NCBI RefSeq assembly: GCF_000429325.1
Contig: NZ_AUBQ01000016.1
Coordinates: forward strand, 1-64,000
Direction of reading: 5' to 3'
Length of the DNA: 64,000 bases
Source of the DNA: Fundidesulfovibrio putealis DSM 16056
GTDB taxonomy: Bacteria; Desulfobacterota; Desulfovibrionia; Desulfovibrionales; Desulfovibrionaceae
Part shown: positions 1 to 28,905 of the stretch, one piece after another
Layout: every line of letters begins with the position of its first letter
How positions within the stretch are numbered: the stretch's first letter is position 1
Program-made: the position numbers and the translations under genes
Notes under the pieces: generated by a model
Database searches by the model: none
Told to the model about the DNA's origin: nothing
What the model saw: the letters and a program-made list of their open reading frames with translations, nothing else

Positions 1-124
1 GGACCTGGGCCAGCTTTCTGCGGCCCATGAGGTGTGTCTTGGCTATCTGCCTGTCCGATTCGCCAAGGCGCATCCGGACAAGAGCATGGCGATATTCAAA
101 CATCTCGAACCTCCGATTGGACAT
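1..124 (-). CDS. istA: IS21-family transposase IstA, N-terminal part
   Basis: Read on the minus strand from ATG at 124, the product begins MSNRRFEMFEYRHALVRMRL and continues with GESDRQIAKTHLMGRRKLAQ, which matches the usual N-terminus of IS21-family IstA transposases, where this part forms the first helix-turn-helix. A GGGAGG ribosome binding site lies about 8 bases upstream. The frame is open to the window edge, so only about 41 residues are visible. IstA carries out cut-and-paste transposition with the ATPase IstB, which must lie further left if present. Identification rests on the N-terminal pattern and on the terminal repeats to its right. A second possible start is ATG at 103. Confidence 0.8.
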   Translation of the reverse strand, partial: MSNRRFEMFEYRHALVRMRLGESDRQIAKTHLMGRRKLAQV

Positions 125-204
125 CCCGCGTACCTCCCGCTCGTGAATCCGGCGGAAATACGTGGCATCTCGAAGGTCCGAAACCCGGTTCGGCCAGGCT
201 AGAC

Positions 205-312
205 TGGCTCCATTACCTGATCATCAAATGGCCCCATTGCGTGAGCACTGGGTGGCTCCATTAGGTGAACATCCGGTGGCTCCATTGGGTGAACATCGAA
301 TGGACCCATAGG
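205..312. repeat. 24-bp periodic terminal repeats of the IS21-like element
   Basis: The motif TGGCTCCATT, or a variant, starts at 205, 229, 253, 277 and 301, exactly 24 bases apart. The units at 253 and 277 share TGGCTCCATT(A/G)GGTGAACATC; the others are diverged. IS21-family elements are known to carry multiple terminal repeats that bind the transposase, and these probably serve that role. Confidence 0.8.
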
Positions 313-362
313 GGCGGTCGCCGACAAAGGTGGGGCATTTTGAACTTTCCCTGCCGTCCACA

Positions 363-1475
363 ATGTTTTCAGACGTAATTGTGCTGGATGACAGGCCCAC
401 TCGTGGGGGAGGTTTGCCGGACTTTTCTCATGCAGTAATTGCAAGACTTATATCATCGCTAGAAAGCAATCCTAATGCTAGTGTTGTTTATTTAATTGGT
501 GACCAGGCGAATGGGAAGAACACAGTATCAGAGTTGAGGCAATTCGATAGTAAGTCTATTGACATTGACCGTGTGTCTAATAAGACTATGATGCCTCACA
601 GTAGTATTCGAAACGTTGCAGATAGAATTGCTGGAAATATTGTTTTTTGTAGTGGTGAAGCGGACATTTCAAGTGATCTTGCAAACAGGTTGAGGCTAGC
701 TCGCGATTTAAAATATAAACAATTTGTAAATAACGAGTCATCAAAAATATTTTTAAATAGGAATCTCAAGGATTTGGAGTTTAGCCTTAGGCGCGAGGAT
801 GGCTGTCGTTTGCATACTGCCTCTGAAGCATATCCGACGGTTCTTGAGATCGCACGTACATCTGTTGGTATCCCACTTATAACTGATCAGGCTGGTCAGG
901 AGTTGCGTGAACTTGATGATTTTAAAGTTTACCTTGAAAATCCTACAAAAGACAGAATACCTGAATTCCTGCATGATGAAACTGAGCAGTTGAATAATTA
1001 TTTTCAAAAAACTTTTCTGGATGAGGAAAGTCTTTTTGGAAAACCCTTGCAAAGAGATAAGCAACTTGAATGTGTGTTAAGGCATGTCAAAAATATTCTT
1101 ACTGAACGTAATAGATTCGCAACAAGGCGTGCGATTTTGGTTGTTCCTCATGACGTTAAGGAGGGTTCTGACATTTCACCGCTGGGACTAGTTTCTGTTC
1201 GAATTCTTCCCCGCTTTGAAAATGATAGGGCCATACTTCATTATAGTTTTACGTGGCGAACTGTTGAGGTACTTGTTGGCTTTCCATATAGCTTGTATGG
1301 CTCAATTTGTTTTGGTGAGTATCTAACTGATAAGGTCAAGTCGATGTGTGGACCAGCCCTTGAAAATGGTGTTAAGATGGGGTCTTTGTCTTATGTTGCT
1401 CACAGTTTGCATATGTTTGTTGATGGATATGGGCAAAACATAGCTAGGTGGATTGTTAATAGCGCGACAAAGTAG
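363..1475 (+). CDS. Thymidylate synthase-fold protein lacking the catalytic cysteine (unknown function)
   Basis: The C-terminal half resembles thymidylate synthase. An Arg-Arg pair (about residues 255-256, ATRRAILVV) matches the phosphate-binding arginines, HYSFTWRTVEVLVGFPY matches the QRSxDxxLGxPF region, and AHSLHMF lies where THLYSNH would be. The segment that should hold the Pro-Cys-His nucleophile reads SPLGLVS (about 271-277), so classical dTMP synthesis looks impossible. The N-terminal 200 residues are unrecognised. It is the first gene of an AT-rich operon, 3 bases before the methyltransferase at 1479. ATG 363 is chosen; a GTG at 330 gives 11 more residues but sits 4 bases from the IS end and has no convincing ribosome site. 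The true 5' end may have been cut by the IS. The fold call is from visible motifs only. Confidence 0.6.
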   Translation: MFSDVIVLDDRPTRGGGLPDFSHAVIARLISSLESNPNASVVYLIGDQANGKNTVSELRQFDSKSIDIDRVSNKTMMPHSSIRNVADRIAGNIVFCSGEADISSDLANRLRLARDLKYKQFVNNESSKIFLNRNLKDLEFSLRREDGCRLHTASEAYPTVLEIARTSVGIPLITDQAGQELRELDDFKVYLENPTKDRIPEFLHDETEQLNNYFQKTFLDEESLFGKPLQRDKQLECVLRHVKNILTERNRFATRRAILVVPHDVKEGSDISPLGLVSVRILPRFENDRAILHYSFTWRTVEVLVGFPYSLYGSICFGEYLTDKVKSMCGPALENGVKMGSLSYVAHSLHMFVDGYGQNIARWIVNSATK

Positions 1476-1478
1476 TTT

Positions 1479-2234
1479 ATGGTTGAAATTTTTACTGATG
1501 AGTTCTTGACCTATAGGGTCATGCAGTTGTTAGGTGATAACAATTTTTCTTGTCGTTGTATGGGGCAAGGTGTTATTTGGTGCTCAGGTTCACTTGGCTT
1601 GGTTCATCAGGTGTTGTCTGCAAATTTATTGTTTGAAGTGCGCCGCTATCTGGATAAATATATTTTGGTTTTTCCTGACAACTGCGACAGGTGCCAACAG
1701 GTTGTCGATGCATTCTTTTCAAATAAATCATTTGATTATGATCAGTCTGTTGACCAGTTTCGTAATATTGAAAACATCAATAATCTTTTTTCTATTGTAC
1801 GTTCATGCGGTCTTTCCGAAAATGCAACTATTCTTGACTACGGGTGCGGTAGCGGTGTTTCGGCTTCCATTGCCTTGCCATCTTCTTGGACAATGTTAGG
1901 CGTTGATAGATGTGCAGATATGCGATGTCTGGCCAGCGCGAACGGGTTGAGTGTTCTTAGTCCTTCCGAATTTAATGTTTCATATCTTTCGCACTTTGAT
2001 GCGATATTCTCTTCATATGCAATGCATCTTGTTTATAGCACGTTTGATTTGCGTGCTTTGTGGCAGTCATTGAGGGAAAATGGTGTTTTTGTCGCTAATT
2101 TTCATAAGGGTTATGGGGTGAAGCGCATTTCTTTGTTTTTTGAGCAGCTTGGGGCTGTGGTTGTCAGTGCGCCATTTAGCGGCAACGTTTATGATCATGG
2201 TCCATATATTATTTTTAGGAAAGGGTCGAAGTAA
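1479..2234 (+). CDS. Class I SAM-dependent methyltransferase (cassette gene 2)
   Basis: The 251-residue product has a Rossmann methyltransferase motif I, ILDYGCGSG (residues about 118-126), followed by a motif II-like GVDR acid. The N-terminal 110 residues contain scattered cysteines and match no domain I know. The start ATG lies 3 bases after the stop of the thymidylate synthase-like gene, and the next gene starts 1 base after this stop, so the three are very probably one transcript. The substrate cannot be read from sequence; the context suggests a nucleotide, nucleic acid or small-molecule target. Base composition is AT-rich like both neighbours and unlike the chromosome to the right. Confidence 0.75.
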   Translation: MVEIFTDEFLTYRVMQLLGDNNFSCRCMGQGVIWCSGSLGLVHQVLSANLLFEVRRYLDKYILVFPDNCDRCQQVVDAFFSNKSFDYDQSVDQFRNIENINNLFSIVRSCGLSENATILDYGCGSGVSASIALPSSWTMLGVDRCADMRCLASANGLSVLSPSEFNVSYLSHFDAIFSSYAMHLVYSTFDLRALWQSLRENGVFVANFHKGYGVKRISLFFEQLGAVVVSAPFSGNVYDHGPYIIFRKGSK

Positions 2235-2235
2235 T

Positions 2236-4002
2236 ATGGTATTTCTTTCTTTAAATGATCTGATGAAGAACTGCACAGGTTGTCCCGGCCCTGATGCTTG
2301 TTTTAAAGCGGCGCGTGTGCTCATTGAGAGTTGTATTCTCCCCGTGTTTGTTGATAATGGAAATGATGTTGTTCTTGTGTCTGATTATATGAGGTTAAAA
2401 TATGTTCTCGAGCAGCTTGCTGCTGATGATAGTCAGGCTTTGTCGGGTGAACTTCTCGTGCAAAAAGATTCATTTATTCGACTTAAACTTTCGAGTGACA
2501 CAACTGTTTATTTTCCTAGGTGCGCTTCTGTTAAAAATTCTTCATTCTATTCATCAATTCACGGTCTTATTTCGAGTGTCTCGGATTCTACTAATGAAGA
2601 TACTTGTACAGTGATTGAGGGGAGATCATATTTCTTGCCTTCTAAAGTTTTCACACGTTCCCATTTTATCGTGCACTCATGTGAGTCGCATCTCGAAAGA
2701 TCAAGTGTTTTATCGACAGTTGAAGCGTCACAATTTGCAAACACCGCATACTATATGGGGTCAAAGCGTTCAGTTCTCGGGTTTCTTGTGGAGGCTGTGT
2801 CGCATATTACTCCTGATGATGGCGTTGTTGTTGATCTCATGTGTGGATCTGGTTCCGCTACTGCCGGTTTTAGTAGGTATTGGCCTACCATTTCTTCTGA
2901 TGTTCAAAGCTTCTGCACTTGTTTGTCAAAGGTTCAAGGTGGAGGTTTTGATCGCAACAAGGCTTCATCTTTAATTGACAGGTTAATTCCCCATGCACGT
3001 GCTCATTTGGGGGATTTATGTAATAGTCTGAGTCCCATGGTTGATAAAGAAGACGATTTCTTTCATAGTGATATTGATTTGGATCTTGTACGGCAATATG
3101 TTGAATTTCATAAAGATTACGTTGTGTATCCTCGCACTGGAAATAATCTTGCTTGGTCTCCTTATGCTGAGGTGCAACGTCGAAGAAAAGTTCACAGCTT
3201 ATATCCTTATTGTCTGTTTACGGCATATTATGCTAATATATTTTTAGGAGTTAGGCAGTGCATCGAAGTTGATAGTCTTCGATTTGCTATAGATCAATTG
3301 ACTGACGACAATGAGAGGTTGTGGGCTCTTGGGGCTCTTGTTGCAACTGTTAGCTCTCTCGCTACGACTTATGCTGGACATTTTGCTCAACCGCCCTTTT
3401 CTAATATTGAGAATCTTACCATCCCAAAAGTTGCGAAACTTATCGACAAGAGATCTAATCCAATTACTCAAGAATTTTGTATTCGTCTTTTGGCGTTGTC
3501 TCGAGAAAGTGAACTGGCTTCGTATCCTGTTGAAGTTGTGCCAGGTCCGTGGAAAATAGCTTTGGATGAGTGTGAAAAAACTTTAAGTGAAAAACCGGTG
3601 ACTGTTTATCTTGACGCTCCTTATACAAGGGATGAGTATAGCCGATATTATCATGTTCTTGAAACTTTGGTGGCGTATAATTATCCATCTGTCAGTGGAA
3701 AGGCTAGTGTTCCAGATAAACGCACTGGGGGACGAGCCCATTCTGAGTTTTTTACAAGGAATAAGCATAATACTGAACTTGCTCTTGCTAATGTAATATC
3801 GAGTGTTGTTGCGCGTGGTTGGAATTGCCTTTGGAGCTATTCTGATACTGGTTGTGCCAATATGGCAAATGTGATTGAAAATGTTGTTAAATTTTCAAAA
3901 TGTCATGTTAAATCATGTGTTGCGCCTCATAGACATAATTCTCAAGGAGGAATGCGTCCCAAGCAGGTTTTAGAGTATGCTGTTTCGTTTATTTCACCTT
4001 AA
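2236..4002 (+). CDS. D12-class DNA adenine methyltransferase-like protein (cassette gene 3)
   Basis: This 588-residue protein has the D12-class order: AYYMGSKRSVLGFL (about 171-184) resembles the N-terminal GSK element, VVDLMCGSGSAT (198-209) is the SAM-binding motif, and YLDAPYTRDEYSRYYHVLE (from 458) is the catalytic loop. The loop reads DAPY rather than the usual DPPY. The first 170 residues are extra; they start with a Cys-x2-Cys-x5-Cys cluster (CTGCPGPDAC) and could be a target-recognition or metal-binding module. The family normally methylates adenine N6 in DNA. No nuclease is visible beside it, so it is either an orphan modification enzyme or part of a different chemistry with the two upstream genes. 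ATG 2236 lies just after an AAAGGG-type site. Confidence 0.7.
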   Translation: MVFLSLNDLMKNCTGCPGPDACFKAARVLIESCILPVFVDNGNDVVLVSDYMRLKYVLEQLAADDSQALSGELLVQKDSFIRLKLSSDTTVYFPRCASVKNSSFYSSIHGLISSVSDSTNEDTCTVIEGRSYFLPSKVFTRSHFIVHSCESHLERSSVLSTVEASQFANTAYYMGSKRSVLGFLVEAVSHITPDDGVVVDLMCGSGSATAGFSRYWPTISSDVQSFCTCLSKVQGGGFDRNKASSLIDRLIPHARAHLGDLCNSLSPMVDKEDDFFHSDIDLDLVRQYVEFHKDYVVYPRTGNNLAWSPYAEVQRRRKVHSLYPYCLFTAYYANIFLGVRQCIEVDSLRFAIDQLTDDNERLWALGALVATVSSLATTYAGHFAQPPFSNIENLTIPKVAKLIDKRSNPITQEFCIRLLALSRESELASYPVEVVPGPWKIALDECEKTLSEKPVTVYLDAPYTRDEYSRYYHVLETLVAYNYPSVSGKASVPDKRTGGRAHSEFFTRNKHNTELALANVISSVVARGWNCLWSYSDTGCANMANVIENVVKFSKCHVKSCVAPHRHNSQGGMRPKQVLEYAVSFISP

Positions 4003-4042: not shown

Positions 4043-4525
4043 CTACCGAAACAACTTCGGAACGTGAATAAACAATAATGGCATTATTACCCCTACACCG
4101 AGGCATGCGGTAAATAATTGTATTAAATAACTTCGATGGAAGTCGCTATGCATGGTCTTTGCCTTATCATATAATTCGGCAGCTTTCTTGGCTGCATCTT
4201 CGCAACGGGCAACGCAAACTTCAAGTCGTGTGGAAAGCTGTGAGACGACTTCAACGGGATAGGTCCTGACCTCGTTTGCGGATGATCTCACGTTCTCGCT
4301 CGCGCTCTTTATGTCCCGCTGCAAAGTCTGCAAGAGGGAAATTACCTCCGACGTACTCTTGGCACGAAGGAATTCCTGCTTGTTCAAAAGAGCAAGCCTG
4401 TCCTGGAGCATGGCCGCCTCTTCCGAATCCGGCATCTGCTGCGTCCTGGTGGCTCCTCCCCATCTCCCGTCCGAGCCAAGCCCCATCCCCAAGCTCTTGT
4501 TGCGAACGTCCTCTGTCTTGCTCAT
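4043..4525 (-). CDS. MobB-like mobilization protein with C-terminal membrane helix
   Basis: The 160-residue product, starting MSKTEDVRNKSLG, is mostly helical with a predicted coiled-coil centre (about 60-125) and ends in a hydrophobic segment (YLIQLFTACLGVGVIMPLLF). An AGAGGT site precedes ATG 4525. It overlaps the last 275 bases of the relaxase gene in another frame. The overlap and the C-terminal membrane helix recall mobA/mobB of RSF1010, where MobB anchors the relaxosome; that comparison is an analogy, as I see no clear sequence match. Confidence 0.6.
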   Translation of the reverse strand: MSKTEDVRNKSLGMGLGSDGRWGGATRTQQMPDSEEAAMLQDRLALLNKQEFLRAKSTSEVISLLQTLQRDIKSASENVRSSANEVRTYPVEVVSQLSTRLEVCVARCEDAAKKAAELYDKAKTMHSDFHRSYLIQLFTACLGVGVIMPLLFIHVPKLFR

Positions 4526-5264
4526 GGCGTAAACCTCTTTGCTGAAGTGAATTCCAAGTATAGCTTTTGCCGAGCTTGCTCCCCTTGAAGGCGACGCCAT
4601 CAAGAGAGAAGCTGATTCCCGAGACGAAACCCGTACTGGCTGTGTTCAGGCGGACTTCAACCCCTACCAAGGCCAGCCGGTCGCGGAAGGCGTCCAGTGA
4701 ACACCCACGGCCAAGCGCTGTGTCCACCGCGTTTTGCAGTTTCATCCGAGCCGAGGACTCTCCCGTCCTCAGGGAGTGCTCAAGTTCTCCCTTTTTGGGG
4801 GCTGTACGGCCCACTTCCTGGCTTGGTGGCACCATACGCAAGCCGAATTGACGCTCCAGGCCGCGAACGATGGTCTCCTGGCGTTTGTAGTCGTGGGAGT
4901 CGCTGACTACCTGGCCGTCCAGCATGATCCGGTTAACCAGAATATGAATGTGCGGATGCTTCGCGTCGGTGTGATGGCTGATGATGTATTGATTGTTCAC
5001 GAACCCCATGCCCTGCATCCAGGCGTGAGCCGCCTCACGCCATTGGTCGTCGGTCAGGCGCTCATCAGGATGGATGCTCAGGCTCGTGTGGCAGACCGCC
5101 TTGGCGAGCCTAGGTCGCATGACACGCACGGCTCCGAATTCGGAGGCAAGCGCGCGTGGCGTTTCCCCGGCCATGTTGGTTTCCAGCAACACGCTCTTGC
5201 CGGGTTGCAGGTCGTATTCCACCGCGCCACGGAAGCCTTTCCCCTTGATCAGCTTGGCAATCAC
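4251..5264 (-). CDS. Relaxase / mobilization nuclease (MobP/VirD2-type)
   Basis: It nicks DNA at oriT to start conjugal transfer. The N-terminal 150 residues follow the PF03432 pattern: MIAKLIKGKGFRGAVEYDL, a likely catalytic tyrosine region, then SHHTDAKHPHIHILVNRI with the HxH-type metal ligands (HPHIHIL). The start overlaps the mobC stop by 4 bases (ATGA). After about residue 245 (SYTWNSLQQRG) the sequence becomes low in hydrophobics and rich in Arg, Gly and Gln, and from there it overlaps the MobB-like gene in another frame. The nuclease domain is intact, so the protein may be functional. Confidence 0.85.
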   Translation of the reverse strand: MIAKLIKGKGFRGAVEYDLQPGKSVLLETNMAGETPRALASEFGAVRVMRPRLAKAVCHTSLSIHPDERLTDDQWREAAHAWMQGMGFVNNQYIISHHTDAKHPHIHILVNRIMLDGQVVSDSHDYKRQETIVRGLERQFGLRMVPPSQEVGRTAPKKGELEHSLRTGESSARMKLQNAVDTALGRGCSLDAFRDRLALVGVEVRLNTASTGFVSGISFSLDGVAFKGSKLGKSYTWNSLQQRGLRHEQDRGRSQQELGDGAWLGREMGRSHQDAADAGFGRGGHAPGQACSFEQAGIPSCQEYVGGNFPLADFAAGHKEREREREIIRKRGQDLSR

Positions 5265-5635
5265 AATTCTTCCCCCAGCAAAGCCCGCTGAAGGCGAATG
5301 ATTTCCTTGCGGACGCCAAGGAGGATAGTGGACGAAACAACGGCGCGCCCCTCGTTGGCGGCCCGGGCGATTTGGTTGATGTTGACGGCAAGGCGCGTCA
5401 ATTCGCCATAGGCTTCACGATTGGCCTCGGGTACGGGTGCAGGTGGCAACTGACGACTCAACGCCGCAGTGCGAAGCCATTGCGCTGGGCTCATGCCCAT
5501 GTGACTGGCCTTGCGCTGGAGTGTTTCCCATTCGGTGGCATTGACGCGGACACCGATTGTAATCCGGCGCACGGCAGAAGGATCGCCCTTGGGGCGTCCC
5601 CCTGGTCGAATTCTTCCTTGGAGTCTGTCTTCCAT
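5261..5635 (-). CDS. MobC-family relaxosome accessory protein
   Basis: The 124-residue product has the ribbon-helix-helix-like start RRITIGVRVNATEWETLQRK and the typical MobC segment REAYGELTRLAVNINQIARA with the conserved NxNQIAR element. It binds near oriT and helps the relaxase melt DNA. ATG 5635 has a strong AAGGAGGAAGG site, so the longer open frame upstream is not used. It is translationally coupled to the relaxase gene. Confidence 0.85.
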   Translation of the reverse strand: MEDRLQGRIRPGGRPKGDPSAVRRITIGVRVNATEWETLQRKASHMGMSPAQWLRTAALSRQLPPAPVPEANREAYGELTRLAVNINQIARAANEGRAVVSSTILLGVRKEIIRLQRALLGEEL

Positions 5636-5968
5636 CACGGCCTTCCTCCTTGAGCCCGGGGCGTGCCATGGGCCACGCCAGCCCGGGCTGGAAGGCCTTG
5701 CCTCGCAGAGCAAGACGTTTGAGCGCAGCGAAAACATGGCTTGCTACAAACCGGCTGCCCCGCGCCACGACAAGTTGACGCATCCGGCTGAGGCGTGGCG
5801 GTCATGGATTTCAAGCGTGACGCCAGGGAAGAAACGGTGAAAACACACTTAAGAGCAAAATTCGCAATATTCGCAGAAAGCCCGCAAACGCCCCCAGAAG
5901 GCATTTTCGCGAATACTGCGAATATTGCGCTATAGGTCTTTTTTCGCGGCGTGAGGTCAGGGTTCATG
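5636..5968. other. Candidate oriT region with long inverted repeat
   Basis: No gene fits this 333-base gap between mobC and the DUF3987 gene. It holds a perfect 14-base inverted repeat, CGCAATATTCGCAG at 5863-5876 and CTGCGAATATTGCG at 5916-5929, with a 39-base spacer, next to AT-rich sequence. Intergenic DNA upstream of mobC is the usual place for oriT of MobP-type systems. The alternative is a terminator of the DUF3987 gene. Confidence 0.45.
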
Positions 5969-7465
5969 TCATGACTCCGAAGTAGGATCGGCGTGGATGC
6001 AGGGATTGACCAAGAACACCCGGGACGGTCGCCCGCGTCCGCCAGTCGCATGATCCCGAGGCAGAATGAAGCCGCGCTCCTCAAGTATGGTCAGGCCCAT
6101 GTTCACCAGGGCCATTTTGGGCCATCGTCCCTTGACCTTTTCCAGAGCGCCGCGCCCCGTGAAGGACGCCAGCCGGTCTTGCCGGAGCCACTGCAAAATC
6201 ACTTTCGCGCACTCGATGCTATCGTCCGCGCCCATGAGACTGAACACTGCCCGAGAGTGCTCGATCAGATGCTTGGCGAGCTTCACCGCACTTTCAAGGG
6301 TCTGCCCGGAGATGGGATGATGCTGGGGAACATCGTGAAGCGTGACATGGCACAGTCCGGCCAGACGAAGAGTCTGTCCGGGGAGTTTGCCGCCCCAGTC
6401 GCGCATGCGGCTGAGCGGCCCCCCGTCCGCCAGATCGGCTTCGATGGAGTTGGCGAAAGCGTACCAGATGGCTCGCGCTTCGTGGCTCAATGGCAGCAAG
6501 TAAGGGACGATGTTCCCCTGAGCATCCCTCTTCCATGGAAGTTGAAGCAGGTTTCTCAAGGTGGAGCCGTAGGCATCGCTGAGGTCCGAGGGGATGGGCA
6601 AGGTTTCCACCGCCCGCGTTCCAACAAGACTCTTTGGCAGCAGGAAGAGCATGCGCCCAAGCAGGCCGCGACCTCGAAAGGCAGGCGTCTGGGCTGCCCC
6701 GGCCAGCACGTCGGGCTGTGCGCTGAGGATAAGTGTCAAGGTAGGTTCTTCAATCAGGATGGGTTCGGCGTGACGGCGGTCGATCCGCACGGCTTCCCCG
6801 CTCCACGACTTGAGCACCGCATCCAGGTTGGGAGCGCCGTGGCTGTAGCGCCCTGCAAGGATGTCAAGAAAGCCGCCCTCGGCCTCGATCATGGCGATGC
6901 GCTGGTCCTGCTGGGCCATCAAGGCGGCCAGTCCTTCGGGAGTGGCGTCGTCCGCCAGCAGCCGGGGAGCCACCGGAAGCGATTCCATCTCTTCGCGGAG
7001 CTGCGCCACCTGACGGATCAAGTCACGCTGTTCGGAGGAATCCTGGCAGCGTTTGGCCTTGGCGATGGCCACGCGGGTCAACTCTTCCTGCACTTGGCGC
7101 TGGGCGTGCGCGTATTTCAGGATTTCAGCGGTCTGTCGCTGCTGTTCGCGTTCCCATTCCAGGAGCGGTGCACGGCAGGCGTCCTTGGCAGCGCTTTTAC
7201 GCTCGCCAGGGGGCAGGATGGCTACTCCATAGATGTTGAGCGTCTCCGTATACCCCTCTCGGATCAGCACGCGGTATTTTCGCTGGCTGGTCGCCGCTAC
7301 CGCTCCTAGGGCATTGAGCAACGGCAACTCAAAGGGGACCTGGATCGAAGCGCTAACGGCAGAGGCAAATTCACCGATTACGCCAGGGAGGATATCATGG
7401 GGAATGGCTCCCGGGGACTGCTCCTCGAAGAGCACAGGGCTGCCGAAAGTGATCTGCTCAGGCAT
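5969..7465 (-). CDS. DUF3987 domain protein (mobile-element helicase/primase-associated)
   Basis: The 498-residue protein matches the DUF3987 layout found in prophages and integrative elements: an N-terminal PFELPLLNALGAVAATSQRK segment, a degenerate P-loop-like ILPPGERKSAAKD (about 83-95), a charged coiled coil (about 100-170), then the conserved RGRGLLGRMLFLLP segment. Members are thought to act in element replication, often beside primases. It overlaps the end of the upstream HTH gene by 8 bases, so the two are coupled. No separate primase domain is visible. Confidence 0.75.
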   Translation of the reverse strand: MPEQITFGSPVLFEEQSPGAIPHDILPGVIGEFASAVSASIQVPFELPLLNALGAVAATSQRKYRVLIREGYTETLNIYGVAILPPGERKSAAKDACRAPLLEWEREQQRQTAEILKYAHAQRQVQEELTRVAIAKAKRCQDSSEQRDLIRQVAQLREEMESLPVAPRLLADDATPEGLAALMAQQDQRIAMIEAEGGFLDILAGRYSHGAPNLDAVLKSWSGEAVRIDRRHAEPILIEEPTLTLILSAQPDVLAGAAQTPAFRGRGLLGRMLFLLPKSLVGTRAVETLPIPSDLSDAYGSTLRNLLQLPWKRDAQGNIVPYLLPLSHEARAIWYAFANSIEADLADGGPLSRMRDWGGKLPGQTLRLAGLCHVTLHDVPQHHPISGQTLESAVKLAKHLIEHSRAVFSLMGADDSIECAKVILQWLRQDRLASFTGRGALEKVKGRWPKMALVNMGLTILEERGFILPRDHATGGRGRPSRVFLVNPCIHADPTSES

Positions 7466-7685
7466 GGGGGCCTCGCAGGATTTCAGCGGTGTCGCGGGTC
7501 TCGACGATCCTAGACGCAGAATAATCGTCTAAGTCTTTAATTTCATAGATAACCCTCCGTCCGTGCTTTCGAAAGCGGGGTCCTTTCCCAAGGGATCGCC
7601 AGACTTCGAGGGTGCCAGGACTGAGGCCGAGATAGGCGGCTGCTTCTCGGTTGTTTAAGGTCCGCTTAGGTACGATGTGGGGCAT
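7458..7685 (-). CDS. Small helix-turn-helix protein (AlpA/excisionase-like)
   Basis: The 75-residue protein has the HTH_17 pattern: LNNREAAAYLGLSPGTLEVW followed by a basic stretch and RRVIYEIKDLDDY. Such proteins act as excisionases or as regulators of element genes. A good AAGGAGAG site precedes ATG 7685, so the 14 extra upstream residues of the open frame are not needed. It leads the DUF3987-mobC-relaxase direction and may control transfer or excision. Confidence 0.75.
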   Translation of the reverse strand: MPHIVPKRTLNNREAAAYLGLSPGTLEVWRSLGKGPRFRKHGRRVIYEIKDLDDYSASRIVETRDTAEILRGPHA

Positions 7686-7776
7686 GCTGCTCTCCTTTGC
7701 CGGGTTAAGTTCGGCAAAGGAAAGCATAGGCAGGACGCGTTAGCACTCTACGGCAAGGTAGAGTGGTTGTTTGCGC

Positions 7777-8583
7777 TTAAATTCTGATTACGCTCACGGG
7801 ATCAAGCAGGGGAACCTCCGACTTCTTGGGCTTGAAAGCAACTCCGTGCTCCCGGTATTTCTCCGCAAGAGCAAGAAAGGCTCCAAGGCCAGAACCAGAG
7901 ACACTGCGCTCAGCAATGTTGAACTTACTAAAATCAACAAAACAAGCTTGGGCAGGGTCGTCAATTACTTTACCTCGAAAAAAAGCAGCCCAATAATGAG
8001 CAACATCCTTGTACCTTGGCCAAATATTGTTAGCAATATTGGACTCTGTAAACCTCACATTGACGCCGTTGACCATGTATTCGCTGACACGCTTACAGCA
8101 ATCATTCTGAATCTTTTCTATATACATCCTGATTGCTCTTGACTTGCTGATTTTTTCAGAGAGGCAAAGAGCAAGGACAGCGCCAGCGCTAAATCCTTTC
8201 ACAAGCATTTCACTGAACTGTTGCCTGAAATAGTCCCCGCGCGGCTTCGATATCGCCATCGAATAGTCGTGAATATTCCCGATCCTATTGATAGCTACAG
8301 ACTGAAGTGTCGACAAATACCTGCTTGATGTGTTTTCATCAAGACCTTTGGAAACCATCAGTGCATATGATTGAGAGGTGTATTCAGGAACAGTCAGATA
8401 CATGTACTCTGTCTGCTTCTCTTTGTCCCCTGGGAAAAGCATGACAGAGTTTATACGTATCATATTCACATAGTGGCAAGACTGAGCATTCAACAGGTCG
8501 GAAATAAAATTGTACATATACGACTTAAAAACCTTTCGCAGCGATATCCAGACGCCAAACATCAAAACAACAAGGCCATACAA
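7777..8583 (-). CDS. Unknown AT-rich cargo protein
   Basis: I do not recognise this 268-residue protein. It starts with a hydrophobic segment (MYGLVVLMFGVWISL) that could be a membrane anchor, followed by a mixed alpha/beta body with many Ser, Asn and Lys and no catalytic motif I can name. The gene is clearly richer in A and T than the integrase and mobilization genes, a sign of later acquisition. It lies alone between the HTH gene and the toxin-antitoxin pair, a common place for accessory or defence cargo. Confidence 0.6.
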   Translation of the reverse strand: MYGLVVLMFGVWISLRKVFKSYMYNFISDLLNAQSCHYVNMIRINSVMLFPGDKEKQTEYMYLTVPEYTSQSYALMVSKGLDENTSSRYLSTLQSVAINRIGNIHDYSMAISKPRGDYFRQQFSEMLVKGFSAGAVLALCLSEKISKSRAIRMYIEKIQNDCCKRVSEYMVNGVNVRFTESNIANNIWPRYKDVAHYWAAFFRGKVIDDPAQACFVDFSKFNIAERSVSGSGLGAFLALAEKYREHGVAFKPKKSEVPLLDPVSVIRI

Positions 8584-8649
8584 ACGTTAAGGTCGCAACA
8601 ACTCGCTGCTACTCCTTATGCCGCAGAGGCAGCTGACTCTCCTCACGGT

Positions 8650-8895
8650 CTACCGTCCGGCTAGGAAATCCACGGACACCCCGGCGCGTTTCAGCCCGGC
8701 CAGAGCACGGCACAGGGCCTCCGTCTCGGCGTCCTCCACGGACTCGGGCCGGACGGCGTGAAGCACATCCTGAATTGCCAAGGCCAGGGCGTGGGGGTCC
8801 CCGTCCTCCATGGCGGCCCGCAAGTAGTGCGCCGCCTGTTCCGGGTCGCTCAGAAGCTCTTTCAGAGTGTCGTCATAATCACGAATAGGGCTCAT
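8650..8895 (-). CDS. HigA/XRE-like antitoxin of a type II toxin-antitoxin pair
   Basis: The 81-residue product has the addiction-module antidote start (DYDDTLKELLSDPEQAAHYL) and helices resembling HigA-type DNA-binding antitoxins. It would neutralise the toxin encoded just upstream and repress the operon. Its start overlaps the toxin stop by 17 bases, and the toxin-first order is typical of HigBA. It is shorter than the usual 95-100 residues and its C-terminus departs from the typical HTH. Confidence 0.75.
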   Translation of the reverse strand: MSPIRDYDDTLKELLSDPEQAAHYLRAAMEDGDPHALALAIQDVLHAVRPESVEDAETEALCRALAGLKRAGVSVDFLAGR

Positions 8896-9229
8896 ACTTT
8901 TCCCCCTTGTAGGCCGCCCAGAGGTCGCGGGCCTTGCTGATGTCCTTGGTCTGGCTGGACTTGTCGCCGCCGCACAGCAGGATCACGAGCGTCTGGCCGT
9001 CCTGCCCGAAATAGACCCGATAGCCGGGACCAAAGTCAATACGCAGTTCGTACAGGCCTCCGTCCAGGGACTTGCAGTCGCCCATGCTCCCGGCCCTGAC
9101 AGTCGCCAGCCGAGATAAGACTTTGGCCATGGCCCGCTTGTCCTTGAGGCCGGTGAGCCAATCCCGAAAAGGCGTTTGTCCGTCTGGCGTCTGATATTCC
9201 AGGGTGCGCTTTGGTGTCGCTATCGGCAT
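8879..9229 (-). CDS. RelE/HigB-family toxin (Gp49-like)
   Basis: The 116-residue protein carries the pattern of phage-derived Gp49-like RelE-superfamily toxins: PFRDWLTGLKDKRAMAKVLS, then LDGGLYELRIDFGPGYRVYF and a final TLVILLCGGDKSSQTKDIS. These toxins cut mRNA on the ribosome. The basic residues in RIDFGPGYRVYF and the CGGDKSSQ segment match the usual active-site neighbourhood. It lies 6 bases from the integrase stop and overlaps the antitoxin gene. Its likely role is to stabilise the element. Confidence 0.85.
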   Translation of the reverse strand: MPIATPKRTLEYQTPDGQTPFRDWLTGLKDKRAMAKVLSRLATVRAGSMGDCKSLDGGLYELRIDFGPGYRVYFGQDGQTLVILLCGGDKSSQTKDISKARDLWAAYKGEKYEPYS

Positions 9230-9235
9230 TATAAT

Positions 9236-10441
9236 CTATTCCCCTACACCGATCTTGAGCACTTTCTTGCCTGTGCCCGCCTTGGCGTCAAGCCCCGCAT
9301 GGCTGGCCAGCAATTCCGCAGCCTTGTCGCTGGCCCGCTTCTTGGCGTCTGGGAGGAACTGCCCATAGCGCCGGGTCATGGCCGTTGACTTGTGTGTAAG
9401 AAGTTCACCGATCATGTCCAGAGTGAATTCTCCCGAGTTGGCCAGGGTCACGGCGAAGTGATGGCGCAGACCGTGGAAAATGCGGAAGCGAGACGGGATT
9501 CCAGCGGTCTGCTTGATACGGCATACGGCTCCGCAAGCCACCCGTTGTTCACCCGCCTTGCCGGGAAAGACGTACGGGCTCTGTGGGAACGCTTCCGCCT
9601 TCCAGGCGAGTTGCTGCTCCAAGATGGTGCGGGCGATGGAGTTCATTGGAATACTCACCGTCTTCCCACCCTTGGGAGCCGTAATGGTAATGAGCGCGGT
9701 CCGGAAATCAATGTCCTGGTCTTTCAGTTTGAACACCTCGCCGCGCCTCATGCCGGTAAACATGGCGAGCTCCAGCATCCGGGCGGCGTCCCGCGACGGC
9801 CAAGAATCTAGCACTTCCTTTAGCCTCGCTGCTTCCTCTGGCTCCAGATATTCGACGACCTCATTGTCCTTCTTGGGCATCTCGATGACAAAGGGCAGGG
9901 GAGGGCAGAGCTTGGCTCTGGCCCCGAAATTTACGATGCGCCGTACCAGTTCCAGGGCGTTCCAGATGGTGGCCGGGGCGCGGCCCTCCATTGCTTTGCG
10001 CAGGCGCACCATATCCAAGGGAGAGAGTTTGCTTGCGCGAAAATTCCCCAGCACAGGCAGGACGTGCTTTTCGTAGCGGTTATGGTCCGTGACGGCACCT
10101 TTGAGGCTGTCGCCCTTGGATGCAAAGTAGGCTCGGGCGATTTCGTCAATGGTCTTGTCGCGCTTGTCGCGTTCGCGTGCAATCTCCTTGGCGGTCTTTA
10201 CGTCCTGGCCGTGCCGAGCTGCTTTGACCCGTTCCGCCCGGACTTCCGCCGCCACTTGCGGCGTGTAGCCTTCGGACTTCCAGCCCACTTTCTCCCAGCG
10301 TTTTTTGTCTCCCACCTTGTAGGTGATCCATAGGCACAAATCAGGCTTGCCATCACGGAGTTTGTCCTTGCTTTCATAATAGTAGACGCCCGGCCAACGC
10401 TTGGCGTCCGCTCTTTGTTTCTGGTTCCGCTCCATCTCCAA
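9236..10441 (-). CDS. Tyrosine recombinase / integrase of the element
   Basis: The 401-residue integrase has an N-terminal arm-binding DUF4102-like part, a SAM-like core-binding domain (about 95-185) and a C-terminal catalytic domain with all key residues: Arg 232 (FTGMRRGE), Lys 257, His 323/Arg 326 (HGLRHHF), His 350 (LLTHKS) and Tyr 359 (TRRYGQF). It catalyses integration and excision at the initiator tRNA-Met site just to the right. TGATACCC repeats lie immediately upstream of its start, so it may regulate its own promoter. Confidence 0.95.
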   Translation of the reverse strand: MEMERNQKQRADAKRWPGVYYYESKDKLRDGKPDLCLWITYKVGDKKRWEKVGWKSEGYTPQVAAEVRAERVKAARHGQDVKTAKEIARERDKRDKTIDEIARAYFASKGDSLKGAVTDHNRYEKHVLPVLGNFRASKLSPLDMVRLRKAMEGRAPATIWNALELVRRIVNFGARAKLCPPLPFVIEMPKKDNEVVEYLEPEEAARLKEVLDSWPSRDAARMLELAMFTGMRRGEVFKLKDQDIDFRTALITITAPKGGKTVSIPMNSIARTILEQQLAWKAEAFPQSPYVFPGKAGEQRVACGAVCRIKQTAGIPSRFRIFHGLRHHFAVTLANSGEFTLDMIGELLTHKSTAMTRRYGQFLPDAKKRASDKAAELLASHAGLDAKAGTGKKVLKIGVGE

Positions 10442-10448
10442 CCTCCGT

Positions 10449-10659
10449 TGATACCCAAGTGATACCCCGACGCCTGGGAAGGCACTTCAACACGCGGATT
10501 TTTGATACCCTATTGGTACCCAAAAGGGCAAATCCGGTTCAATTTCGTTAAGCAGTGTTCGGGTGAATGACCCGAGGTGGGATAGTCTGTCAAGCTTGAA
10601 AATAAAGGATAAAATGCGTCCATTAAACTCGGTTTAGCTGGGTATCAAATCGGGTATCA
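10449..10659. repeat. Integrase arm-type repeats between int and the attachment site
   Basis: TGATACCC occurs at 10449 and 10460 (11 bases apart) and at 10503, and the inverted form GGGTATCA occurs at 10640 and 10652 (12 bases apart) beside the tRNA fragment. A variant (TTGGTACCC) lies at 10514. Paired, helically phased repeats between int and att are the usual form of arm-binding sites for tyrosine integrases. Confidence 0.7.
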
Positions 10660-10670
10660 ATGGCAGGTGT

Positions 10671-10720
10671 CCGGGCTCATAACCCGAAGATCGTGGGTTC
10701 AAATCCCACCCCCGCAACCA
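10671..10720 (+). other. attR: 3' fragment of initiator tRNA-Met
   Basis: The anticodon stem-loop CCGGGCTCATAACCCG (anticodon CAT), the T arm GTGGGTTCAAATCCCAC and the acceptor end CCCGCAACCA match the 3' half of tRNA-fMet, including the CCA. The sequence to the left (TGGGTATCAAATCGGG) does not form a D arm or 5' acceptor strand, so this is a fragment and not a gene. It marks the right end of the integrated element; the complete tRNA gene should lie beyond the left edge of the window. Confidence 0.85.
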
Positions 10721-10728
10721 GAGAAATC

Positions 10729-10764
10729 AAGGGCTTACGGAATAAACACCTTAGGCCCTTTTTT
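10729..10764 (+). terminator. Terminator of the original tRNA gene
   Basis: AAGGGC pairs with GCCCTT across a 20-base loop and is followed by TTTT and more pyrimidines. It sits 8 bases after the CCA of the tRNA fragment and probably ended the intact tRNA transcript. Confidence 0.5.
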
Positions 10765-15949: not shown

Positions 15950-16409
15950 TGCCGCGCCCTTAAGGTCAGATCAAACAACTTGTGAATCTATCTGCCTGGA
16001 ATTATACAGTTTGTATGTACTGGCATGGTCATGAGTGACATGCACACTTCGCAGTAGGCGGAACGCCTCCGCAACTCTTTCCCGCGACGCTCCACGTACA
16101 CGCACCACCTCCCCATGCCCGGAGACGAGAAGCAGTGCTGCCCGGCAGAGCAGGGCACCCTGGGTGCTGATGTATCTTCTTCCGGAAAATGATCCTTTTC
16201 TGTTGTGCTGTGTGGAAAATGTGGTATGATTCAAGAGTCTGTAGTATTGTGTAAGTAATACAGGCGGTTGTGAGTGTTTTACTTTTGTGTGCTGCTTTGG
16301 ATGCGGAGTCGTCAGTCCGACGGAAAAGTTCGAATAACATCTGCTTCGCCTCGGCGGGTAAGATTCATCACCAACTGCTGATGGACGATGACGGGAAATG
16401 AGGTATGTT
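15950..16409. other. Region without a supported gene
   Basis: About 460 bases with no convincing open frame. The stretch 16180-16280 is AT-rich and may carry the promoter of the small membrane protein at 16410. No RNA structure was recognised. Confidence 0.4.
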
Positions 16410-16514
16410 ATGTCTGACAAACAAAGCGGAAAGATCGGATGGGCTTTGCTTTGGATTTTGGGTGTTCCTTTGCCAATCCTTTTTGTGGTGTATCTCTTGC
16501 GCGGGTGTTCCTAG
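16410..16514 (+). CDS. 34-residue membrane peptide
   Basis: ATG 16410 to TAG 16514 encodes MSDKQSGKIGWALLWILGVP and then PILFVVYLLRGCS: a short charged N-terminus, one membrane helix with a central Gly-x-Pro-x-Pro, and a C-terminal Arg-Gly-Cys-Ser. GAGG lies shortly upstream. The composition and ending (LLRGC) resemble small single-helix proteins found in many proteobacteria, but I cannot name a family with certainty. A terminator follows 70 bases later. Confidence 0.65.
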   Translation: MSDKQSGKIGWALLWILGVPLPILFVVYLLRGCS

Positions 16515-16587
16515 GAGGACCTCGTGCCGCTTTCCCCGTCGGCGTGTGGGAGAGCAACACTCGTGCTGTCGAGTGATTACCATAGGA

Positions 16588-16615
16588 GAGGCCGGGGGCT
16601 TTCGCCCCCGGCCTC
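16588..16615 (+). terminator. Terminator after the small membrane protein
   Basis: Perfect 12-base arms GAGGCCGGGGGC and GCCCCCGGCCTC enclose TTTC and are followed by TTC. It lies between the plus-strand small gene and the minus-strand gene ending at 16668 and may act in both directions. Confidence 0.75.
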
Positions 16616-16667
16616 TTCATGTCTGTTTTCGCTTACGAACGCTCCCGGCAAATGCCGCATCTCTGGC

Positions 16668-16952
16668 CTATTTTTCCCACTCCCTGCGGCGTCTGGCCAT
16701 CTCGGCCTTCAGCCGGGACACCGTGCGCTCATAGCCGCCGGGGTGATGGGGCTTCAGGCACTTCGTGCAGTCCTTGATGGGACCGAGCATGTCGTAATCG
16801 CCCTCGCAGTCCTCCAGGAAGTACAGGGGGCAGTAGCAGAACAGGCAGTTGAAAACGTCCGTATCCGCGCCGGGATGGCAGGGAAAGTACTTGCAGGCCC
16901 GGTTCTGGTAGAAAGCGTGGGACGCCTCCTGGCATGCGGATTGCTTATCCAT
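16668..16952 (-). CDS. Cysteine-rich small domain protein
   Basis: The 94-residue protein matches the 'cysteine-rich small domain' family (PF04071): CKYFPCHPGADT, then FNCLFCYCPLYFLEDC, then KDCTKCLKPHHPGGY. The nine or so cysteines probably bind zinc or an iron-sulfur cluster. The family is often found near cobamide or metal-enzyme genes, but its function is not established. It is divergent from the gene at 16985, with a 32-base gap. Confidence 0.85.
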   Translation of the reverse strand: MDKQSACQEASHAFYQNRACKYFPCHPGADTDVFNCLFCYCPLYFLEDCEGDYDMLGPIKDCTKCLKPHHPGGYERTVSRLKAEMARRRREWEK

Positions 16953-16984
16953 GATGCAGACTCTTCTTCCAAGGGGTTAACGTC

Positions 16985-18190
16985 ATGGTTATGACGCCGC
17001 AGAATATCGCCGCCGCCCTGGCGGCAAGGCCGGAAGTGACGAGGCTCGGCGCTTCCCGGCTGTCGCAGGACCAGGGCGCGTTCAAGACCATGCTCACCAG
17101 CGAACTGGGTGTAAGCCAGGAGGTTCTGCGGGGCAAGGGCAAGGACGCGCTGTCGCTGCTCAAGCAGAATTCTCCCACAACGCCCGGATTCCAGGACGCT
17201 CAAGCAACCGTCGGGAAAGGCGCGTCCGGGGCCATGCAGGCCCTGATGCGCGAGCAGGCCAAGGCTCAGAATCAGTCCCAGTCCCAGACCCAGAACCAGG
17301 CCCAGGCCAAAAGCACCGCTCCGGTGCGCACGGGCGAGGTGCGCGGCAAGATCGCCTCCAACGAGGCGCGCGGGGTGATCAACCTGAACGCCCGCCACTC
17401 CGAGGACCTGGGCCACCTGCCCGGAAACTCCAGCAAGACGGGGCTCCCCGCAGGATTCACCAAGGCCGAGGAGGACCTCCTGTTCGCAGCAGCTGCAGCC
17501 GAGTCCAAGTTCCTGGCGGCCAAGCGCCAGTCCGTGCTGGCCCGCGACGACGCCAAGTACGAGCGTTCCGATAAGATCGGCATCCTGTCTGCGGCATACG
17601 AGTCGCGCGGGGCCATCGACGCCATCGGCTACGACGGCCGGGGCGGCACCTCCTACGGCACCTACCAGATCGCCTCGGGCGTGGGCACCATGAGCCGCTT
17701 CCTGAACTATCTGGAGGCCAAGGCCCCGGATCTGGCCGCACGCCTGTCCACCTCCGGCCCGGCCAACACCGGCGGCCGCGAAGGCGCCATGGCCAACGAG
17801 TGGAAGAACATCGCCTCCCAGCATCCCAAGCGCTTCGAGGCCCTGCAGCACGAGTTCATCGGCGACACCCACTATCAGCCCGCGCTCAAATCCGTCACCC
17901 TGTCCACCGGGGAGGACCTGTCCAAGCGCTCCCAGGCCGTGCGCGAGGTGCTCTGGAGCACCGCCGTGCAGCACGGGCCGAACGGCGCGGCGGACATCTT
18001 CACCTCCGCCGTGGAGAAGCTCCAGGCCAAGGGGCAGGAGAAGTCCGACAAGGCCCTCATCGAGGAAGTCTACGCCCAGCGCATGACCCAGTTCGCCGGG
18101 AGGGGACGCCTGCGCGTCGCCGTGACCACCCGTCTTGCCGACGAGAAAGAGTCCGCCCTGGCCATGCTCGGCGGCAGAAGCCTGAGCTGA
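16985..18190 (+). CDS. Putative peptidoglycan hydrolase-like protein with Gln-rich linker
   Basis: The 401-residue protein has an N-terminal disordered half with a low-complexity Gln/Ser/Ala stretch (about 88-105), then a globular part with the motif AYESRGAIDAIGYDGRGGTS followed by YGTYQI. This resembles lysozyme-like or phage-tail murein hydrolase folds, in which Glu before Ser-Arg-Gly would be catalytic. No signal peptide is visible, so export would need a dedicated route such as a flagellar, type VI or phage path. The assignment is tentative. Confidence 0.55.
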   Translation: MVMTPQNIAAALAARPEVTRLGASRLSQDQGAFKTMLTSELGVSQEVLRGKGKDALSLLKQNSPTTPGFQDAQATVGKGASGAMQALMREQAKAQNQSQSQTQNQAQAKSTAPVRTGEVRGKIASNEARGVINLNARHSEDLGHLPGNSSKTGLPAGFTKAEEDLLFAAAAAESKFLAAKRQSVLARDDAKYERSDKIGILSAAYESRGAIDAIGYDGRGGTSYGTYQIASGVGTMSRFLNYLEAKAPDLAARLSTSGPANTGGREGAMANEWKNIASQHPKRFEALQHEFIGDTHYQPALKSVTLSTGEDLSKRSQAVREVLWSTAVQHGPNGAADIFTSAVEKLQAKGQEKSDKALIEEVYAQRMTQFAGRGRLRVAVTTRLADEKESALAMLGGRSLS

Positions 18191-28090: not shown

Positions 28091-28113
28091 TCTTGACCCA
28101 ATCAACCTGGACA

Positions 28114-28167
28114 CGCAGAGCCCATAAGGGTTTCCAAAGGGGCTCGCCCCTTTGGCCGCCGGAGGCT
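28114..28167 (-). repeat. Dispersed palindromic repeat, copy 2
   Basis: CGCAGAGCCCATAAGGGTTT followed by CCAAAGGGGCTCGCCCCTTTGG-type core and CCGCCGGAGGCT. It matches the copy at 61528 almost base for base and the copy at 19191 in reverse. The core is a perfect 10-base-arm hairpin. Confidence 0.85.
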
Positions 28168-28301
28168 GTCTTCCGCGACACCCTGACCCATGCCAGTCAC
28201 AGACGTTCGTCGCAAGAAACCCCCGTCGCGGAGGCTTTATCCGCAACGGGGGTACAATTATCTACACCGTCACTGTATCTGACGTAAGGGGAACTCCAGT
28301 A

Positions 28302-28559: not shown

Positions 28560-28905
28560 TTCTTACCTCATGATCGTTTCTTGGAGTTCATAGAGAGCCA
28601 AGTCTAACGTGTGCGATTCACCCGTTACCTGCCACAGCCGATTTTTGCGCATTGCGCTCCTGGTTTACGGTTTCTGGACCAAACGAATCCGTTCTTGCAT
28701 CATCCTCTCAGTGGCAAGGATGATCTGCGGACCCATTTCTGATAAAGCGCATTTTTTTTACTATGTCCAGTAAATAAACAACTGTCTGCAGGACAAAGCA
28801 CAGAACCATGGAAATACATGCGAAGAAACACGGTCCGTGTTCCGCAGTGCATCCATGTCGTGCTGAAATTCAAGAGGCAGCTTGTGGGTATTTCAAAAGA
28901 GGGCG
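28560..28905. other. Region without a supported gene
   Basis: About 345 bases holding the promoter side of the small exported protein and the 3' flank of the M20 peptidase gene. I see a TTTTTTTT run near 28752 but no clear hairpin and no credible gene. Confidence 0.4.

What the first reader, a model, noticed from the sequence alone, without database searches (positions are those of the whole stretch)
363..4002. Three-gene AT-rich cassette: TS-fold protein, SAM methyltransferase and D12-like methyltransferase
Three genes with 1-3 base gaps, all far richer in A and T than the flanking genes, sit as cargo in an integrative element. They encode a thymidylate synthase-fold protein, a class I methyltransferase and a D12-class adenine methyltransferase-like protein. 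I know of no described defence or DNA-modification system with this set. No nuclease is present, so the hypothesis is a modification-based or nucleotide-manipulating defence system, or a base hypermodification pathway. The gene pattern is seen; the role is inference.
Basis: partly seen in the sequence, partly recalled or inferred. Interest (0 to 1): 0.8.

Follow-up and report, generated by a model that had tools for sequence, protein, structure and literature searches.

The report
IS-broken five-gene mobile enzyme cassette
The three genes are the surviving right half of an unnamed five-gene cassette, split here by a jumping gene but whole on mobile elements of distant bacteria, which pairs a signalling-nucleotide synthase with DNA-methylating enzymes and may defend cells against viruses.

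Summary
The three reading frames exist, but the cassette is misread. The "TS-fold gene" is the 3' part of a longer gene cut by an IS21-family insertion; the contig begins inside that insertion. The missing part lies at the start of another contig of the same genome, next to an IS end, with a matching 5-bp duplication. Rejoined, the gene has 862 codons. The operon has five genes: D12 DNA methyltransferase, HAD-IIB phosphatase, GGDEF-linker-TS-fold fusion, class I methyltransferase, D12-like methyltransferase. It is cargo of a mobilizable element in tRNA-Met (79-bp att repeats). The five genes, in this order, occur in four other loci: a Bradyrhizobium plasmid (GGDEF-TS gene truncated beside an IS), a Planctomycetota MAG, a Prolixibacteraceae MAG (with a SLATT_4 gene) and an IMG/VR contig. 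I found no named system with this set. GGDEF residues are kept in 5 of 5; the TS nucleophile is missing in at least 4 of 5; the last methyltransferase has DAPY instead of DPPY in 4 of 5. Best guess: a mobile conflict/defence module around a GGDEF nucleotide synthase; main rival: a nucleotide- or DNA-modification pathway. Anatomy is well supported; function is inference.

The parts
1..326 (.). End of an insertion sequence (right end ...GGTCGCCGACA), IS21-family by its other end; the contig begins inside it
   Evidence: Recurs in whole or part at the ends of contigs C15, C12, C6 and C8; sequences diverge after window 326. The end on C11 shares the inverted motif GTGGCTCCATTA and encodes an IstB fragment, PF01695 E 8.6e-16
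327..331 (.). 5-bp target duplication AAGGT, also beside the IS end on contig C11
   Evidence: sequences, printout of both flanks
332..1475 (+). 3' part of the GGDEF-TS gene (g3): end of linker with DDRPxxGGGLPDF motif, then TS-fold domain
   Evidence: the whole gene has 862-868 codons in three intact loci
1479..2234 (+). g4, class I SAM methyltransferase, 251 aa
2236..4002 (+). g5, N-terminal domain (about 165 aa) plus D12-like DNA methyltransferase with DAPY motif, 588 aa
4251..5264 (-). relaxase (MobA/VirD2-like) of the mobilizable element
   Evidence: PF03432 E 2.4e-34
5261..5737 (-). mobilization protein (NikA/MobC-like)
   Evidence: PF21983 E 1.9e-14
5969..7465 (-). DUF3987 protein of the element
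   Evidence: PF13148 E 9.4e-94
9236..10441 (-). tyrosine integrase of the element
   Evidence: PF00589 E 3.2e-23
10672..10750 (.). attachment site, 79 bp identical to the tRNA-Met 3' end and flank at C11:4190-4268
   Evidence: tRNA

Best explanation
Shown: the finding is the 3' part of a five-gene operon (D12 methyltransferase g1, HAD-IIB phosphatase g2, GGDEF-linker-TS-fold fusion g3, class I methyltransferase g4, D12-like methyltransferase g5), cargo of a tRNA-integrated mobilizable element and cut inside g3 by an IS21-family insertion; the same five genes in the same order sit in mobile or mobile-like contexts elsewhere. Inferred: it is a conflict (most likely anti-phage) module run by nucleotide signalling. 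g1 would mark DNA at a sequence. g5, derived from type II modification methyltransferases but with an altered catalytic motif in most copies, would read DNA or nucleic-acid state. The GGDEF domain of g3 would make a guanine-type cyclic or linear dinucleotide. Its TS-fold domain, without the TS nucleophile, would bind a (deoxy)nucleotide and gate that synthesis. The HAD phosphatase and g4 would process the signal or its precursor. The output is either a plugged-in effector such as the SLATT membrane protein of one locus, or an unrecognised activity of the five proteins. In this genome the system is probably off.
For: Other half and IS. All five genes in 5 of 5 loci. Mobile contexts. GGDEF: PF00990 E 1.1e-14 (L008) and 4e-19 (L009), PDB profile and fold matches to GGDEF proteins; the DLDxFK...N...GD block and [GS]G[DE]E[FY] are in 5 of 5 (four GGDEF/GGDEY/GGEEF, one SGDEF). 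HAD catalytic residues (roles recalled) invariant in 5 of 5. g1 has DPPY in 5 of 5. Of 6 plasmid records outside Bradyrhizobium that match g5 I fetched 4: all annotated DNA adenine methylase, 2 beside BglII/BstYI-family restriction endonucleases. SLATT_4 (NF033632 E 6.9e-36) lies 48 bp upstream of g1 in L009. GGDEF domains are reported on rare occasions in computationally predicted conflict systems (PMC7159879, passages), and a HAD phosphatase is part of the phage-tested two-gene system DS-9 (PMC13092281, passages; there the other gene was the one mutated).
Against: No dedicated effector or nuclease was recognised in 4 of 5 loci; SLATT occurs in only 1 of 5. No known defence gene was shown beside the cassette (only part of each neighbourhood was scanned). 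The GGDEF residues predict c-di-GMP, which would cross-talk with the host's own GGDEF proteins (22 matches, 2 of them the two g3 pieces, so 20 others). HAD plus three methyltransferases would suit a biosynthetic pathway as well. The TS part has no usable model (pLDDT mostly under 40) and the linker only a weak one (mostly 45-75). Only five loci are known. No expression or phage test.
Confidence: 0.4

Rival explanations
1. Nucleotide or DNA modification pathway: the TS-fold domain, HAD phosphatase and three methyltransferases make a modified nucleotide or put an unusual mark on the element's or host's DNA, for self-protection; the GGDEF domain regulates it.
For: Five predicted enzymes and no clear effector in 4 of 5 loci; TS relation; g1 and g5 related to DNA methyltransferases; thymidylate synthase and 5-hydroxymethyluracil kinase are listed among newly validated defence domains in PMC13092281 (passages seen; whether in one system I did not see).
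Against: No Cys in the ThyA Cys146 column in 5 of 5 by MAFFT and in 4 of 5 by hhalign register; no nucleotide kinase, glycosyltransferase or NMAD-type hit in the set; DAPY in place of DPPY in 4 of 5 g5.
Confidence: 0.3
2. Not defence: regulatory or maintenance cargo (for example epigenetic control of the element's transfer coupled to c-di-GMP signalling).
For: Carried by a mobilizable element, a mobilizable plasmid, an integrase element, a locus beside a serine recombinase and a phage-like contig; GGDEF keeps the guanine-site residues (roles recalled); no defence phenotype known.
Against: The carriers are of different kinds, which makes a role tied to one transfer or replication machinery less likely (whether the relaxases of the window element and the Bradyrhizobium plasmid are related was not tested); the cargo differs in GC from the element itself (0.40 against 0.57).
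Confidence: 0.2
3. Variant restriction-modification system whose nuclease is hidden in g5's N-terminal domain, g3's linker or elsewhere.
For: g5 resembles methyltransferases found beside BglII/BstYI-family endonucleases; two D12 methyltransferases.
Against: No nuclease family hit in the proteins scanned with Pfam, NCBIfam, PHROGs or PADLOC at the thresholds used; GGDEF, TS-fold and HAD have no known place in such a system.
Confidence: 0.08

Closest known systems
Panoptes (OptS/OptE) and CBASS
   Same: Short operon with a nucleotide synthase; the GGDEF, Cas10 and mCpol catalytic domains are related (PMC12657218, passages seen); one locus has a 2TM SLATT protein that matches PADLOC 2TM effector models.
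   Different: g3 has a GGDEF motif and is fused to a linker and TS-fold domain; no mCpol, CD-NTase or S-2TM-beta effector found; no SLATT seen in 4 of 5 loci; HAD and three methyltransferases extra.
TS-containing defence unit named by DefensePredictor (PMC13092281; start of abstract and passages only)
   Same: A thymidylate-synthase domain in a phage-tested defence unit.
   Different: The figure legend also abbreviates dNMP kinase, 5-hmdU kinase and NMAD (not said which system); none of these is in this set, and the term GGDEF was not found in that paper's text.
Type II restriction-modification (BglII/BstYI family)
   Same: g5 of the window aligns with four outside methyltransferases (two beside such endonucleases) over 344-432 positions at 21-26% identity, sharing the YSRxYH block.
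   Different: No endonuclease found; DAPY motif in 4 of 5 g5; extra N-terminal domain of about 165 aa; GGDEF-TS, HAD and g4.
Diguanylate cyclases (PleD, DosC and others)
   Same: GGDEF domain with catalytic and guanine-site residues kept (residue roles recalled).
   Different: Fused to a linker with a DDRPxxGGGLPDF motif and a TS-fold domain; none of the family models that matched g3 covers both domains.
Thymidylate synthase / dNMP hydroxymethylase
   Same: Remote similarity; equivalents of ThyA Arg126/127 and Arg166 kept (roles recalled).
   Different: Nucleophile Cys not in the aligned column (Bradyrhizobium has a Cys there only in the hhalign register; L023 has a Cys two residues after the MAFFT column); fused to GGDEF.

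Membership tests
Thymidylate synthase (ThyA/methanogen type) | score above the family cut-off | tested here: not met
   28.7 bits against 174.55; 30 bits in the genome search
Thymidylate synthase (ThyA/methanogen type) | catalytic cysteine | tested here: not met
   MAFFT: V or I at ThyA Cys146 in 5 of 5; hhalign register: V in four, Cys in Bradyrhizobium; L023 has a Cys two residues past the MAFFT column
Thymidylate synthase (ThyA/methanogen type) | detectable homology | tested here: met
   hhalign score 36.8 against at most 20.4 in 60 shuffles and 14.6 for 4 control profiles; hhalign probability only 53%
GGDEF nucleotide cyclase | Pfam GGDEF above cut-off and signature motif | tested here: met
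   L008 55.0, L009 69.4, Bradyrhizobium 43.8 bits against 23.8 (host half and L023 not run against Pfam); motif in 5 of 5, L023 with SGDEF
GGDEF nucleotide cyclase | makes c-di-GMP or another dinucleotide | not testable with these tools
   needs enzyme assay
D12 N6-adenine DNA methyltransferase | PF02086 and DPPY motif, g1 | tested here: met
   E 8.3e-22 (L008) and 1.8e-27 (Bradyrhizobium); DPPY in 5 of 5
D12 N6-adenine DNA methyltransferase | PF02086 and DPPY motif, g5 | tested here: not met
   PF02086 above cut-off (34.0 against 22 bits) but DAPY in 4 of 5, DPPY only in Bradyrhizobium
Type II restriction-modification | cognate restriction endonuclease | tested here: not met
   no endonuclease family hit in the proteins scanned
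CBASS | CD-NTase (SMODS) synthase | tested here: not met
   synthase-like domain is GGDEF; PADLOC gives 0 families for g3 of L008 and L009
Panoptes | stand-alone mCpol plus S-2TM-beta effector | tested here: not met
   weak Cas10 palm matches only, E 0.00075 and 0.037, below cut-off; no such effector seen
Anti-phage defence system | protects cells from phage | not testable with these tools
   no phenotype data
Phosphoribosyltransferase (linker of g3) | PRPP-site homology | tested here: not met
   hhalign 16.4 against Apt/PyrE/YhgH; 6 of 100 shuffles scored higher (best 21.6); no Pfam or PDB match
Integrative mobilizable element | integrase, relaxase, att repeats at a tRNA | tested here: met

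The most novel reading that the evidence does not exclude
A new kind of immune module: restriction-modification-type DNA methyltransferases, one of them altered into a reader, wired to a GGDEF synthase that is gated by a TS-fold (deoxy)nucleotide-binding domain, so that unmarked DNA or a disturbed dNMP pool is turned into a guanine-based second messenger, with a HAD phosphatase resetting the signal.
Probability: 0.15. Interest if true: 0.92.

Novelty: categorically new. Interest (0 to 1): 0.72.

Why it matters
The gene set matches no named system that I could find, yet it is kept together and in order on different kinds of mobile or mobile-like elements in distant phyla, which speaks for one selected function. 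A GGDEF synthase fused to a TS-fold domain and tied to modification methyltransferases would, if defensive, join two worlds so far kept apart: methylation-based self/non-self marking and nucleotide second-messenger immunity. It also gives a clean test set: three intact loci (L008, L009, L023) against two with a damaged g3. The 'categorically new' label refers to the gene set and architecture; the function is not shown.

Tried and rejected
Structure prediction: g3 of L008 (mean pLDDT 50.2, TS part mostly under 40) and g5 of the window (48.3) were too poor to use beyond the GGDEF domain; the alignments held only four rows. PDB sequence searches with the window's gene 1, gene 3 and the TS-region profile gave only weak hits that look like chance.

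Phosphoribosyltransferase idea: the invariant DDRPxxGGGLPDF motif of g3's linker recalls a PRPP site; hhalign against E. coli Apt, PyrE and YhgH overlapped the motif each time, but the joint score (16.4) was exceeded by 6 of 100 shuffles, and Pfam and PDB gave no such family. Dropped as a claim, kept as a lead.

SLATT as the general effector: seen in 1 of 5 loci; in the window's element no ORF over 100 aa lies between tRNA-Met and g1, and the 140-aa ORF before g1 in L008 has no Pfam match. Rejected as a general part.

More loci: 149, 395, 345, 392 and 149 genomes searched with the window protein or g3 profiles gave only the already known genome at the centre of each search; phages 0 of 50,697 records, plasmids 1 of 72,556, first viral scan with the window protein none, later viral scans for g3 and g5 always the same contig. 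The genome-contig scan used two peptide patterns only, so two loci is a lower bound. g1's family is common: 64 viral loci, one of them the known contig, and 91 plasmid records, one of them Bradyrhizobium; their neighbourhoods were not examined. It is no marker of the system.

The other IS copies: the script looked for the C11-side IS end in the fetched ends of C15, C12, C6 and C8 and found none (those stretches hold the other end), so that both ends belong to one IS is inferred from the shared inverted motif, the duplication and the IstB fragment.

Bradyrhizobium P0006 (149 aa between g2 and the IS1380 transposase gene) as the N-terminal piece of g3: MAFFT places it there but tblastn of four g3 proteins does not detect it, so it is not claimed; what is seen is that the GGDEF part starts at about residue 152 of g3, behind the IS1380 gene.
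Full report
1. The observation. They have GC 0.40, 0.41 and 0.40; the rest of the element (4043-10671) has 0.57 and window 13001-64000 has 0.65. Gene 2 is a class I SAM methyltransferase and gene 3 matches the D12 methyltransferase family. Gene 1 matches the methanogen thymidylate synthase model at E 8.6e-7 but far below its cut-off.

2. Gene 1 is half a gene. The window starts at base 1 of contig C9 of its genome. Window 1-326 recurs, in whole or part, at the ends of contigs C15, C12, C6 and C8 and the sequences diverge after base 326. A search of the same genome with the N-terminal 516 residues of the Planctomycetota homologue finds residues 6-485 at C11:352-1761 (E 1.8e-105) and residues 483-516 at the window's start (E 3.3e-10). 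Contig C11 begins in an IS end that encodes an IstB_IS21 fragment and carries, inverted, the GTGGCTCCATTA motif of the window's IS end. Both flanks carry AAGGT. With one copy kept, the frame is open for 862 codons; the intact homologues have 864, 868 and 862. Beyond that half, upstream in the operon's sense, C11 carries g2 and g1. So the real cassette is g1-g2-g3-g4-g5, interrupted in g3 by a simple IS21-family insertion. The two contigs were not joined by reads here; the join rests on the duplication, the IS ends and homology.

3. The element. A 79-bp perfect repeat links the 3' end of a tRNA-Met gene on C11 (4190-4268) with window 10672-10750. Between them lie the five genes, a relaxase, a MobC-like protein, a DUF3987 protein and a tyrosine integrase: an integrative mobilizable element with an AT-rich cargo.

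4. Relatives. The five genes in the same order occur in each of the four other loci found. Identities are to the window's 370-aa gene 1. (a) Bradyrhizobium japonicum USDA 123 plasmid pUSDA123-1, 32%, behind mob genes; an IS1380 transposase gene lies between g2 and the GGDEF part of g3, which lacks about its first 150 residues, and g5 is in two overlapping frames. (b) A Planctomycetota MAG, 55%, between a serine recombinase and a tRNA-Ala. (c) A Prolixibacteraceae MAG, 44%, between a tRNA-Arg and an integrase, with a filamentous-phage-type replication gene; a 13-bp copy of the tRNA end lies behind the integrase, but a second 13-bp match in the same comparison shows that such length can be chance; a SLATT_4 gene lies 48 bp before g1. 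(d) An IMG/VR contig, 46%, beside tail, holin-like and endolysin-like genes. The system is rare: see the search counts in Tried and rejected.

5. The proteins. g3: GGDEF is clear by Pfam, by PDB profile search and by Foldseek of the model, whose 50 listed best hits are GGDEF proteins. The DLDxFK...N...GD block and [GS]G[DE]E[FY] are in 5 of 5 copies, L023 with SGDEF; by recalled knowledge of PleD the N and D are guanine-recognition residues, so GTP is the likely substrate. The TS relation is remote: hhalign score 36.8, E 1.3e-4, probability 53%, but above all 60 shuffles (best 20.4) and four control profiles (at most 14.6). In the MAFFT alignment ThyA Cys146 faces V or I in all five copies; in the hhalign register it faces V in four and a Cys in Bradyrhizobium; L023 has a Cys two residues further on. 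The arginine pair TRR and the Arg of WRT, which by recalled knowledge hold the nucleotide phosphate in ThyA, are invariant. The reading that this is a nucleotide-binding, non-catalytic TS domain is an inference. g2: Cof-type HAD with invariant catalytic residues. g1: D12 with DPPY in 5 of 5. g5: six plasmid records outside Bradyrhizobium match it; of the four that I fetched, two lie beside BglII/BstYI-family endonucleases, one beside a phospholipase D family protein and another methyltransferase, one near a DUF2357 protein. All four have DPPY, as does the Bradyrhizobium g5; the other four g5 have DAPY. So Bradyrhizobium is the only copy with DPPY in g5 and, in one alignment, a Cys in the TS site; this is a single contrast, not a statistic. 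g4: class I methyltransferase of unknown substrate.

6. Mechanism. I commit, at 0.4, to a nucleotide-signalling conflict module (see best explanation). The strongest reasons are the intact GGDEF residues, the loss of the TS nucleophile and of the canonical motif in g5 in most copies (both argue for sensing rather than catalysis), and carriage by mobile elements. The weakest point is the missing effector: SLATT in 1 of 5. A modification pathway is the main rival at 0.3. That g3 is damaged beside an IS in 2 of 5 loci might mean that g3 is costly, but g3 is also the largest gene, so chance is not excluded.

7. Known or new. PADLOC models hit the methyltransferases (and weakly Mad2 and others) and SLATT, none for g2 of L008 or for g3 of L008, L009 and the window. 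Paper searches for combinations of GGDEF, thymidylate synthase, defence, HAD and methylase terms (listings seen) gave no description of this set; the library lacks most subscription papers and all preprints, and only listed papers were looked at. Passages of three papers were read by term search: PMC7159879 (GGDEF on rare occasions in predicted conflict systems; SLATT predicted as pore-forming effector), PMC13092281, PMC12657218. No named system that I tested is met by the membership tests.

8. Verdict. Observation partly confirmed; interpretation partly supported; anatomy well supported; function open and testable.

Noticed in passing
window 8650-9229 (-): A Gp49-like (DUF891, PF05973) toxin-like ORF (8879-9229) with an adjoining small ORF (8650-8895, not scanned), possibly a toxin-antitoxin pair of the element.
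   Followed up: partly
window 7777-8583 (-): A 268-aa ORF of the element with no Pfam match at E 0.01.
   Followed up: no
G000 contigs C6, C8, C9, C11, C12, C15: IS ends sit at several contig ends, so the IS likely causes the assembly breaks; other genes may be split across contigs in the same way.
   Followed up: partly
window 16001-17000, 28001-29000, 42001-43000: GC dips to 0.55, 0.53 and 0.58 in a 0.65 background, possible further acquired genes.
   Followed up: no
L002 9948-11551: In Bradyrhizobium g5 is two frames overlapping at TTGA, cut between the SAM-binding motif and the DPPY motif: a natural split enzyme or a frameshift.
   Followed up: partly
L023 3860-4312 (-), 509-1297 (-): A DNA repair protein of phrog_10276 (RadC-like, name recalled) and a YhgA-like putative transposase (PF04754) lie on one side of the cassette on the virus contig.
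   Followed up: no
L099 401-1403: A Bacteroides phage has a short thymidylate synthase (212 aa) next to a DNA methyltransferase gene.
   Followed up: no
G000: The methanogen TS model, which rings in 9 of 14 control genomes, finds only the cassette's TS-fold domain in this genome, so the host probably lacks ThyA.
   Followed up: no
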